NCBI GenBank assembly: GCA_001310555.1 | Contig: BAXO01000004.1 | Coordinates: 34,577-98,576, forward strand | DNA from: Bacillus sp. JCM 19058 | GTDB lineage: Bacteria > Bacillota > Bacilli > Bacillales_H > Bacillaceae_D | Direction: 5' to 3' | DNA length: 64,000 nucleotides | Shown: positions 20,020 to 21,577 of the stretch, in pieces | Layout of the letters: each line of letters starts with the position of its first letter | How positions within the stretch are numbered: position 1 is the stretch's first letter | Program-made: the position numbers and the translations under genes | The notes under the pieces: generated by a model | Told to the model about the DNA's origin: nothing | Database searches by the model: none | What the model saw: only the letters and a program-made list of their open reading frames with translations

Positions 20020-20669
20020 TCACGGTTTTCTTACATTTTGTTTAAGCGTTTCTACATCACCTTCTAGAATAAGGTTAATATTTTCGTTGATGCTCCTTAT
20101 ATCGAGATCCCACCATGCGATTTCAAGCAAATCTTTAATTTTTTTCTCGGAGAATCTTTTCTTGATTAAACGTGCGGGGTTGCCACCAACAACTGTATAA
20201 GGCTCTACGTCTTTTGTTAGAACCGATTTTGTTGCAATAATAGCTCCGTCACCTATTTTTATTCCAGGCATGATTGTTACGTCTCTTCCAATCCAAACAT
20301 CATTCCCAATTTCTGTGTTTCCTTTGTAAGTAGATCGTCCAATGTAGGGGTATATCTCTCCCATCCGTTTCCGAAAAGATTGAAAGGGTATGTTGAACCA
20401 TCCATTCGATGATTAGCTCCGTTCATGATAAAGGTAGTGCCTGGTCCAACGGAACAAAACTTCCCTAATATTAACTGATCTCCAATTGCTTCGTAATGGT
20501 AAAGAACTTGATCTTCAAAGTTTTCGCCATCATCACTGTCGTAATAAGAATAATCCCCTGCTACAATATTAGGCTTTGTAATAGACGGTTTAATAAACCG
20601 GACACGCCTGTTGTTTTTAATAGGATATACCTCTTCTGGGTTTGGTCCTAATTGGCTTTGTGATTTCAA
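20020..20669 (-). CDS. vat: VatA-like streptogramin A O-acetyltransferase, one indel
   Basis: The enzyme transfers acetyl from acetyl-CoA to the hydroxyl of group A streptogramins, preventing ribosome binding. The sequence follows VatA/VatD closely: GEYSYYDS-like GDYSYYDS, FEDQVLYHYE, the hexapeptide beta-helix, NGANHRMDGSTYPF with the catalytic His, then IGNDVWIGRDVTIMPG and GGNPARLIKKRF. A one-base insertion near 20333 splits the frame. TTG 20669 is preferred because it lies eight bases behind GGAGGG; the upstream TTG 20675 is too close. It is 17 bp downstream of vgb and shares its terminator, so both are co-transcribed. Confidence 0.92.
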
Positions 20670-20686
20670 ATTCAATTCCCTCCATT

Positions 20687-21577
20687 TTATTTACTCAATT
20701 TAAGTCTGCCTATCTTGTTACATTGTAAGGCGAACCATACGAAACCATCTTTATCATACGCAATACCATGTGGCTCTGCATTTTCCGTTTGGATTTGATA
20801 TTCAAAAATTGATCGGTCACTTGTCATCCTGCCTATTTGATTAGCGCCCCATTCAGTGAACCATAACTCATCGCCTTCCCCTGCAATGATCGCATGTGGA
20901 CGTGCGTTTGTCGTTGGAAGGTCATACTCACTGATCTCTCCAGCAGTACTGATTCGTCCTATTTTATTTCCCAAGATTTCGACAAACCAGAGTGCACCAT
21001 CGTTACCACTGGTGATGCCAACCGGTCCAGCGGCTTGAGTAGGAAGAGGGTATTCTGTTAATTCCCCTGTAATAGTCATTCTGCCAATCATATTATTTTG
21101 ATTTTCCGTGAACCATAGAGCGTGATCAGAGCCTAAGGTAATAATTGAAGGAAAGGAACCCTTAGTTGGAAGATCGTACTCAGACAGATCGCCACCCATT
21201 GTCAATCTCCCTATTCGGTCTCCATTCAATTGCGTAAACCATATGTCACCATTTAAACCTTCAGTTATACCATAGGGTGCGGAATTTTGATGTGGCAGTG
21301 GGTATTCTGTAAAATCACCTGATGTTGTGAGCTTTCCTATTTTATTGGCAGCATACTCTGTAAACCATATGTCGCCACTAGAGGCTACAATTAAACACAT
21401 CACTTGAGCATCATTTGTGGGAACTGTAAATTCTTGAATCTCACCCGCATGATTCAGACAACTAATTTTGTTTGCTTTATGTTGCGTAAACCATACCTTT
21501 CCATCTTGTGCTACAGCTATTCCATACGGTCCTGAATCAGGTGTTGGTAAATGAATTTCTTTTAAATCAAAGTTCAT
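20687..21577 (-). CDS. vgb: Virginiamycin B lyase (streptogramin B linearising enzyme)
   Basis: This Vgb lyase opens the ester ring of group B streptogramins by elimination. The 296-residue frame is intact and forms seven propeller blades, each with a motif like GNDGALWFVE and KIGR. The two PH motifs of the last blades (RPHAI, EPHGI) supply the His residues expected in the active site, next to LWFTEWG and VWFALQ. ATG 21577 follows GGAGGG. Expression probably depends on the leader with a terminator 33 bases upstream. Together with vat it should give resistance to both streptogramin components. Confidence 0.93.
   Translation of the reverse strand: MNFDLKEIHLPTPDSGPYGIAVAQDGKVWFTQHKANKISCLNHAGEIQEFTVPTNDAQVMCLIVASSGDIWFTEYAANKIGKLTTSGDFTEYPLPHQNSAPYGITEGLNGDIWFTQLNGDRIGRLTMGGDLSEYDLPTKGSFPSIITLGSDHALWFTENQNNMIGRMTITGELTEYPLPTQAAGPVGITSGNDGALWFVEILGNKIGRISTAGEISEYDLPTTNARPHAIIAGEGDELWFTEWGANQIGRMTSDRSIFEYQIQTENAEPHGIAYDKDGFVWFALQCNKIGRLKLSK

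What the first reader, a model, noticed from the sequence alone, without database searches (positions are those of the whole stretch)
20020..21577. A vgb-vat operon giving two-component streptogramin resistance
A Vgb lyase (intact) and a VatA-like acetyltransferase (one indel) are adjacent with 17 bp between them and a shared terminator. Together they inactivate both streptogramin classes. Such pairs are known mainly from staphylococcal plasmids; here the context is an apparently chromosomal environmental Bacillaceae region beside Tn3 debris, so it may represent a reservoir or an ancestral form.
Basis: partly seen in the sequence, partly recalled or inferred. Interest (0 to 1): 0.8.

Follow-up and report, generated by a model that had tools for sequence, protein, structure and literature searches.

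The report
Streptogramin-resistance operon with drug-sensing leader
Two neighbouring genes of a Bacillus-family bacterium look like enzymes that destroy the two halves of streptogramin antibiotics, and a short RNA switch in front of them, shared with many relatives and with one Enterococcus plasmid copy, probably turns them on when such a drug stalls ribosomes.

Summary
Window 20687-21577(-) is an intact Vgb lyase gene; 20020-20675(-) is a Vat gene lying in two reading frames, followed by a terminator. The pair is closest to VgbB and VatC profiles, not VatA. Such pairs are widespread outside staphylococci: of 55 vgb loci in species genomes, 12 have an intact vat just downstream and 2 just upstream. 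VgbA and VgbB, the transferable enzymes, fall inside Bacillaceae clades.

A leader RNA (21610-21854) carries a three-codon uORF inside an anti-antiterminator stem, an antiterminator element and an intrinsic terminator, the architecture proven for B. subtilis vmlR. All three helices far exceed slid controls; covariation supports two of them. The leader occurs in 32 of 55 vgb loci, on the vgb(A)-vat(A) plasmid of an Enterococcus faecalis isolate, and before vat, ABC-F and MFS genes. A tripeptide uORF should be stalled by streptogramin A but not B, so the B-lyase is probably induced by its partner drug. The enzymes are known kinds; I found no report of this leader on vgb or vat. Nothing was tested at the bench.

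The parts
21871..21899 (-). candidate sigma-A promoter of the leader-vgb-vat transcript (hexamers 10 of 12, 17-nt spacer)
   Evidence: best of 7 sites found, but 6.5 expected by chance, so weak alone
21610..21854 (-). leader RNA (attenuator), from the uORF Shine-Dalgarno to the terminator T-run
   Evidence: R1 model 116 bits, E 1e-22 (the window is itself a row of the model); fold z-score -5.41 for 21605-21860
21826..21837 (-). three-codon uORF (Met-Ile-Gln-stop) with Shine-Dalgarno at 21845-21854
   Evidence: a three-codon uORF at the same place in 51 of 54 leader copies by pattern
21711..21842 (-). anti-antiterminator stem-loop: arms 21823-21842 and 21711-21727, inner stem 21803-21810 with 21742-21749; encloses the uORF
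   Evidence: 92.4% of 539 cells paired; at most 49.6% when slid
21725..21735 (-). antiterminator element, complementary to the terminator 5' arm (21632-21642)
   Evidence: 96.5% of 200 cells paired; at most 50.8% when slid; letter shuffles not exceeded
21664..21704 (-). hairpin between antiterminator element and terminator, in the place of the vmlR pause hairpin
   Evidence: role inferred
21610..21644 (-). intrinsic terminator hairpin and T-run in the leader
   Evidence: 85.8% of 219 cells paired; at most 56.6% when slid; not listed by the simple scan, its stem has a bulge
20687..21577 (-). vgb: streptogramin B lyase family, 296 aa, intact
20277..20675 (-). vat, N-terminal part (streptogramin A acetyltransferase family), TTG start, in one frame
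20020..20364 (-). vat, C-terminal part (hexapeptide repeats), in another frame
19966..20005 (-). terminator-like hairpin after vat (16 pairs)

Best explanation
This is an inducible operon for streptogramin inactivation. Vgb linearises streptogramin B by elimination; Vat acetylates streptogramin A (if the window's vat is really intact). Expression is set by transcription attenuation in the leader. Without drug, a ribosome translates the tripeptide uORF and leaves, the anti-antiterminator stem forms, the terminator forms, and transcription stops before vgb. A drug acting on the peptidyl transferase centre, such as streptogramin A, a lincosamide or a pleuromutilin, stalls the ribosome at the uORF start. 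That stops the first stem from forming, frees the antiterminator element to take the terminator's 5' arm, and lets RNA polymerase read through. Shown here: gene identity, leader architecture, its conservation, covariation of two helices, and a predicted switch in the folding of nascent leaders. Inferred: transcription, stalling, induction and resistance. The inducer is inferred to be streptogramin A rather than B, because B-type drugs bind the exit tunnel (recalled) and should not stall a three-codon ORF.
For: Vgb: VgbB profile 525.9 bits, PF24684 438 bits, full-length match to lyase structures 2qc5 and 2z2n. The histidine replaced by alanine in the 2z2p chain is present in the window protein; that it is catalytic is recalled. 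Vat: both pieces hit Vat profiles and VatA structures. Leader: anti-antiterminator, terminator and antiterminator pairings kept in 20 aligned leaders, 92.4%, 85.8% and 96.5% of cells, against at most 49.6%, 56.6% and 50.8% when slid. Covariation score reached by 0 of 500 shuffles for the first and 2 of 500 for the second. R1, trained on 19 of the 55 loci plus the window, also found 13 untrained vgb loci and the E. faecalis plasmid leader at 133.5 bits. Switch: with RNA ending before the terminator 3' arm, masking 31 nt at the uORF gives mean antiterminator pair probability of at least 0.5 in 20 of 20 leaders against 6 of 20 unmasked; for the window 0.16 to 0.88. Precedent: vmlR MIN uORF with anti-antiterminator, antiterminator and terminator, tested by mutation (PMC9226507, abstract and passages). 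[quoted passage not shown] The B. inaquosorum leader that I take for vmlR matches R1 weakly, 24.2 bits, E 4e-4 in 8.6 kb.
Against: Complete leaders at equilibrium: with the uORF masked only 7 of 20 leave the terminator, and the window is not one of them; the switch depends on co-transcriptional timing. Masking other stretches also raised antiterminator probability: at least 0.5 in 8, 8 and 14 of 20 for offsets +36, +51 and +66. Six of 20 unmasked nascent leaders already favour the antiterminator. For the antiterminator the shuffle control is not exceeded (103 of 500 shuffles reach the percentage paired, 71 of 500 the covariation score). For the terminator the number of pairs with changes on both sides (3) is no higher than in two slid versions (4 and 3). 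Two mechanical terminator scans did not list the window's leader terminator. 23 of 55 vgb loci have no R1 match (some are distant homologues or cut short), among them L037, the window's closest relative, which keeps only the 3' half. Vat is not one open frame in the window. No expression or resistance data.
Confidence: 0.75

Rival explanations
1. The operon is real but constitutive or weakly regulated in this organism; the leader is a decaying relic of an attenuator.
For: The window's antiterminator helix has one mismatch, and masking the uORF does not move its complete leader off the terminator at equilibrium. Vat is frame-broken. Tn3 debris sits close upstream. The nearest relative L037 lacks the 5' half of the leader.
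Against: uORF, Shine-Dalgarno, all stems and the T-run are present in the window; the nascent fold switches from 0.16 to 0.88; dN/dS is 0.169 for Vgb against L037 and 0.17 and 0.14 for the Vat pieces (NG86), so selection was acting until recently.
Confidence: 0.15
2. The leader is a terminator for the upstream region plus chance complementarity, with no uORF-based sensing.
For: Hairpins with repeated complementary arms can arise by chance; 7 promoter-like sites found against 6.5 expected; the antiterminator helix does not exceed its shuffle control.
Against: Conserved across genera with three overlapping helices that all exceed slid controls; same element before 16 vgb or vat, 9 ABC-F and 26 MFS genes of 54 copies; proven counterpart at vmlR.
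Confidence: 0.05
3. vat is a true pseudogene and the locus now works as a single-gene streptogramin B lyase, like the loci of relatives that have vgb without an adjacent vat.
For: Two frames; relatives L017, L030 and L035 hold vat remnants; the N-piece sits on a longer end branch than L037, 0.21 against 0.043 (that piece included some out-of-frame residues, so the length is inflated). dN/dS of the pieces is somewhat above that of intact pairs (0.07-0.12 for L001-L002 and L037-L001, NG86); YN00 gives 0.28 for the N-piece against L037.
Against: dN/dS of both pieces against L037 is far below 1 (0.17 and 0.14 by NG86, 0.28 and 0.17 by YN00). GH3 and CydC in the same window are split in the same way, which points to indel errors in the record.
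Confidence: 0.3
4. Vgb and Vat homologues here act on other natural substrates, not clinical streptogramins.
For: Vgb-like propellers are widespread, including actinomycetes and proteobacteria, and were not assayed here.
Against: Vgb is 73-89% identical to that of three vgb-vat pairs (L002, L001, L037), shares a clade with VgbB, the A- and B-acting enzymes are adjacent, and the leader is of the class that senses this drug group.
Confidence: 0.07

Closest known systems
VgbB and VatC of Staphylococcus cohnii (both listed under AF015628 in PMC5916979, passages)
   Same: Best NCBIfam profiles for both products; VgbB (2qc5) in the same 5-row clade as the window, support 99/90
   Different: Bacillaceae context; Vgb below the VgbB allele cut-off; vat frame-split; the S. 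cohnii leader was not available here
vgb(A)-vat(A), here on E. faecalis plasmid LR961926
   Same: Gene order, adjacency and the same leader class (133.5 bits)
   Different: 64% Vgb identity; different clade; a DDE transposase gene lies between leader and vgb(A)
vmlR leader of B. subtilis (mechanism PMC9226507); the B. inaquosorum counterpart L097 matches Rfam RF02452 ncr1575
   Same: Tripeptide uORF starting Met-Ile inside an anti-antiterminator stem, then middle hairpin, antiterminator, intrinsic terminator
   Different: Controls an ABC-F protector; weak sequence match to R1 (24.2 bits); the window leader does not match RF02452. That L097 is vmlR is inferred from its ABC-F gene and MIN uORF.
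VatI and VgbC of Paenibacillus sp. LC231 (PMC5155152)
   Same: Environmental streptogramin enzymes, shown active in that paper (passages)
   Different: In the passages seen, neighbours of vat differ between strains; no operon or induction is described ('operon' and 'inducib' 0 hits)

Membership tests
Vgb streptogramin B lyase (PF24684; NF000096 and NF000022) | Full-length match above the family cut-off | tested here: met
   PF24684 438 bits against 50. The allele models VgbB/VgbA are matched at 525.9/448 bits but not to their 600 cut-off, so it is not one of those two alleles.
Vgb streptogramin B lyase (PF24684; NF000096 and NF000022) | Active-site residues conserved | tested here: met
   One position tested: the one altered to alanine in 2z2p is His in the window, within a conserved stretch; the full catalytic set is recalled, not tested.
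Vgb streptogramin B lyase (PF24684; NF000096 and NF000022) | Linearises streptogramin B | not testable with these tools
   Needs enzyme assay.
Vat streptogramin A acetyltransferase (NF000311) | Match above cut-off 300 in one protein | tested here: not met
   The pieces score 189.7 and 156.4 apart; vat is not one open frame in the window. Related pairs have intact vat ORFs.
Vat streptogramin A acetyltransferase (NF000311) | Vat sequence features in each part (NGANHRMDGST motif; hexapeptide repeats) | tested here: met
   Motif in the N part aligned to VatA; hexapeptide repeats in the C part; role of the motif's His recalled.
vmlR-type tripeptide-uORF attenuator | Short uORF with Shine-Dalgarno inside a 5' stem | tested here: met
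vmlR-type tripeptide-uORF attenuator | Mutually exclusive anti-antiterminator, antiterminator and terminator | tested here: met
   slid controls; nascent folds; equilibrium folds of complete leaders switch in only 7 of 20.
vmlR-type tripeptide-uORF attenuator | Sequence membership in Rfam RF02452 | tested here: not met
   No gathering-level match over the leader in the window or in 26 of 27 other loci submitted (11, of which L037 holds only part of the leader; 16); only L097 matched RF02452. It works like it; it is not a member of that sequence family.
vmlR-type tripeptide-uORF attenuator | Drug-induced stalling and read-through | not testable with these tools
   Needs reporter and toeprint experiments.

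The most novel reading that the evidence does not exclude
vgb and vat across Bacillales and Paenibacillales belong to an unrecognised family of tripeptide-uORF attenuators that senses stalled initiating ribosomes and drives a distributed resistance regulon: B-lyase, A-acetyltransferase, ABC-F protectors, several MFS pumps and perhaps an alpha/beta hydrolase. The B-specific lyase is therefore switched on by its partner, streptogramin A, or any similar drug, also where no vat lies next to it; and the transferable vgb(A)-vat(A) left the Bacillaceae with this switch attached.
Probability: 0.6. Interest if true: 0.65.

Novelty: new variant of a known kind. Interest (0 to 1): 0.55.

Why it matters
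It turns a gene-pair note into a testable control circuit. Two-drug synergy is an old theme for streptogramins; here the sensor would read one partner and disarm both. The same leader before many resistance-type genes gives a handle for finding unknown ribosome-drug resistance genes. The leader upstream of a plasmid-borne vgb(A)-vat(A) is DNA-level evidence for where that pair came from.

Tried and rejected
Rejected: 'VatA-like' (VatC profile is better); 'known mainly from staphylococcal plasmids'; Rfam hits at lax thresholds in the leader region, all far below gathering scores and taken as chance. A first terminator scan with strict symmetry missed most leaders, the window's too, and was replaced by pattern search and alignment. 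A protein search with Vgb returned 48 proteins at E up to 1e-80, best identity 46%, although closer ones exist, so it was not used for counts. A plasmid search with the window leader found nothing; with the E. faecalis leader it found only its own record. Synteny: of the window's flanking ORFs (12-20 kb and 21.6-30 kb) one weak ABC match was printed under the filter used, so no shared neighbourhood with L001, L002 or L037 was seen within the roughly 5 kb held on each side. First nascent-fold script applied no constraint, redone. In one search the L037 Vgb start was wrong and the three Vgb comparisons with L037 were dropped; window-L037 was redone. draw on the same order and overlap, so their tallies must not be added. 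The hydrolase of L057 passes the cut-off of a polyhydroxyalkanoate depolymerase model (404.4 against 300), so a drug-inactivating role is speculation.

Full report
What is there. On the minus strand of the window, from upstream to downstream: a promoter-like site (21871-21899), a structured leader (21610-21854), vgb (20687-21577), vat in two frames (20020-20675), and a terminator-like hairpin (19966-20005). Vgb is a full-length member of the Vgb lyase family (PF24684, 438 bits), best matched by VgbB (525.9 bits; structure 2qc5) and 64% identical to plasmid Vgb(A). The two vat parts match Vat families, VatC best (220.9 and 160.9 bits). Trimmed to their in-frame parts, they show dN/dS against the L037 vat of 0.17 and 0.14 by NG86 and 0.28 and 0.17 by YN00; intact vat pairs L001-L002 and L037-L001 show 0.07-0.12 by NG86. 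So the protein was under selection until recently. Because a GH3 glycosidase and CydC in the same window are split in the same way, I cannot tell a real frame break from an error in the record. The host is a Bacillaceae bacterium by inference: its CydD is 58% identical to that of Evansella halocellulosilytica, the best of the 8 genomes searched.

How common the pair is. A scan of species genomes with Vgb gave 55 loci. Vat parts matched in 18 of them. Intact vat ORFs lie just downstream of vgb in 12 (L001, L002, L013, L016, L021, L023, L025, L026, L037, L040, L043, L047) and just upstream in 2 (L038, L048); three more are remnants (L017, L030, L035) and one (L049, Saccharopolyspora) was not resolved by my ORF filter. 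The flanks of the window operon share no neighbourhood with L001, L002 or L037 within the roughly 5 kb held on each side, and the Vgb of Oceanobacillus oncorhynchi groups with the window and Evansella rather than with four other Oceanobacillus, which suggests horizontal movement.

Where the transferable genes come from. In a tree of 54 Vgb proteins, VgbB falls with the window, L037, L001 and L002 (5 rows, 99/90), and the plasmid Vgb(A) falls within 13 rows of Neobacillus, Siminovitchia, Cytobacillus and others (100/100). The tree is drawn with a midpoint root, and some forks are open. In the tree of Vat N-parts (28 rows), the window part pairs with L037 (97/89), and VatA with P0018, named Bacillus tuaregi (97/92).

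The leader. Upstream of vgb the window has GAAAGGGTGA, then a three-codon ORF Met-Ile-Gln-stop (21826-21837), whose start and stop lie in the 5' arm of a long stem. Twenty leaders (window plus 19 loci) were aligned. Anti-antiterminator pairs: 92.4% of 539 cells paired, slid controls at most 49.6%; 6 pairs with changes on both sides (17 of 500 shuffles reach that), covariation score reached by 0 of 500. Terminator: 85.8% of 219 cells, slid at most 56.6%; covariation score reached by 2 of 500, but the 3 pairs with changes on both sides are no more than in two slid versions. Antiterminator: 96.5% of 200 cells, slid at most 50.8%, but letter shuffles often reach the observed values (103 of 500 for percentage paired, 71 of 500 for covariation), since this helix is mostly conserved rather than covarying. 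The window leader folds at z = -5.41 against shuffles. No Rfam family at gathering threshold overlies the leader in the window or in 26 of 27 other loci submitted (11, of which L037 holds only part of the leader; 16); the exception is L097, the B. inaquosorum locus that I take for vmlR from its ABC-F gene and MIN uORF, which matches RF02452. The simple terminator scans did not list the window's leader terminator.

Does the switch work on paper? In complete leaders all 20 form the terminator; masking 31 nt at the uORF makes 7 of 20 leave it, not the window. In nascent leaders ending before the terminator 3' arm, 20 of 20 adopt the antiterminator when masked, against 6 of 20 unmasked; the window goes from 0.16 to 0.88 mean pair probability. 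Masking the same length at +36, +51 and +66 gave 8, 8 and 14 of 20; I read the +66 result as the mask reaching the 3' arm of the inner stem, which I did not test further. So the switch is plausible and depends on timing.

How far it reaches. Model R1 matches on the vgb strand in 32 of 55 loci plus the window; 13 of the 32 were not in its training set. The other matches are on the opposite strand of the same places, an effect of the palindromic stems. In 28 loci the leader starts within 500 bp before vgb, in three it lies before a vat that precedes vgb (L035 remnant, L038, L048), and in L013 before an ABC-F gene that leads an apparent ABC-F-vgb-vat operon. Of the 28, 9 have an intact vat downstream, 2 have a remnant (L017, L030), and 17 gave no vat match in the fetched flanks; in two of these 17 (L036, L041) the sequence between leader and vgb looks by eye like a vat remnant, and some of the 17 have a vat elsewhere (P. 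lautus L036 in L061; Bacillus sp. ZZV12-4809 of L032, named at P0038). In whole genomes, R1 hit 7 of 8 vgb-bearing genomes, 32 of 397 and 24 of 249 genomes drawn from the same order (overlapping), and 10 of 246 of the order of Paenibacillus lautus, all at E up to 0.001. I looked at all 54 leader copies for which these calls gave loci on the right strand: 16 precede vgb and/or vat, 9 ABC-F genes, 26 MFS transporters (named by family search, by similarity to those, or for a few only by weak similarity or reading the ORF), 1 an alpha/beta hydrolase (L057; NCBIfam names it a polyhydroxyalkanoate depolymerase, above cut-off), and 2 were unassigned (L093, L116). At least seven of the 54 are the same genomic copies as rows of the training alignment. 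By pattern, 51 of 54 have a uORF of exactly three codons, 44 of them Met-Ile-x; L112, L116 and L120 did not match the pattern. No set of random genes was examined as a control for what follows the leader, and no function of the MFS genes was tested.

The plasmid copy. On E. faecalis plasmid record LR961926 (L103), vgb(A) and vat(A) are adjacent, and about 1.8 kb upstream of vgb(A) lies a leader scoring 133.5 bits, E 3e-28. A DDE transposase gene (1007-2269) sits between leader and vgb(A). What this does to expression was not assessed. It is the only plasmid record of the collection that this leader found.

Mechanism and the partner-drug idea. The B. subtilis vmlR leader works by antibiotic stalling on a Met-Ile-Asn uORF that blocks an anti-antiterminator (PMC9226507, abstract and passages). 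The B. inaquosorum version resembles R1 weakly (24.2 bits, E 4e-4 in 8.6 kb). [quoted passage not shown] Streptogramin B binds the exit tunnel near the macrolide site (recalled), so a three-codon uORF should not sense it. Hence the inference that Vgb is induced by the A partner, also in the loci with leader and vgb but no adjacent vat.

Literature. Eight searches and passages of papers did not show a leader or uORF for vgb or vat: PMC10201436 has 0 hits for both words, PMC10219788 0, PMC12421871 0, PMC5155152 no 'operon' or 'inducib'. Of the other papers I saw listings, abstracts or passages only. Most subscription papers are not held, so this is no proof of novelty; lmo0919, vga(A) and cplR attenuators are known.

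Verdict. Ordinary enzymes, a real and widespread operon, and a regulatory leader of a known working principle on genes where I found no report of it. Interest 0.55.

Noticed in passing
L057:1503-2768 (second copy in the genome of L001, Evansella halocellulosilytica): A second leader copy (127.4 bits) precedes an alpha/beta hydrolase that passes the cut-off of a polyhydroxyalkanoate depolymerase model, with weak matches to macrolide esterases; why it should stand behind such a leader is unexplained.
   Followed up: partly
L013:3013-6586: Leader, Vga-type ABC-F, vgb and vat in one apparent operon: target protection plus inactivation of both streptogramins.
   Followed up: partly
L074, L076, L077, L080, L081, L085, L088: Leaders before MFS or ABC-F genes that seem to hold two antiterminator-like motifs in a row, perhaps a double attenuator (by eye).
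   Followed up: no
L103:520-4053: Plasmid vgb(A)-vat(A) with its Bacillaceae-type leader separated from vgb(A) by a DDE transposase gene.
   Followed up: partly
window 1364-3750, 46762-48484, 22046-22604: GH3 and CydC split into ORFs covering consecutive profile parts, and Tn3 transposase in three pieces; suggests indel errors in the record, decay, or both.
   Followed up: partly
window 16089-16721: LAGLIDADG-like homing endonuclease domain ORF (PF14528) near the operon.
   Followed up: no
L022: In Cytobacillus oceanisediminis 2691 about 220 bp more DNA than in L027 lies between the leader and vgb (leader at -483).
   Followed up: no
L036 and L041, between leader and vgb: Sequence that looks by eye like the end of a decayed vat, in Paenibacillus.
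   Followed up: no
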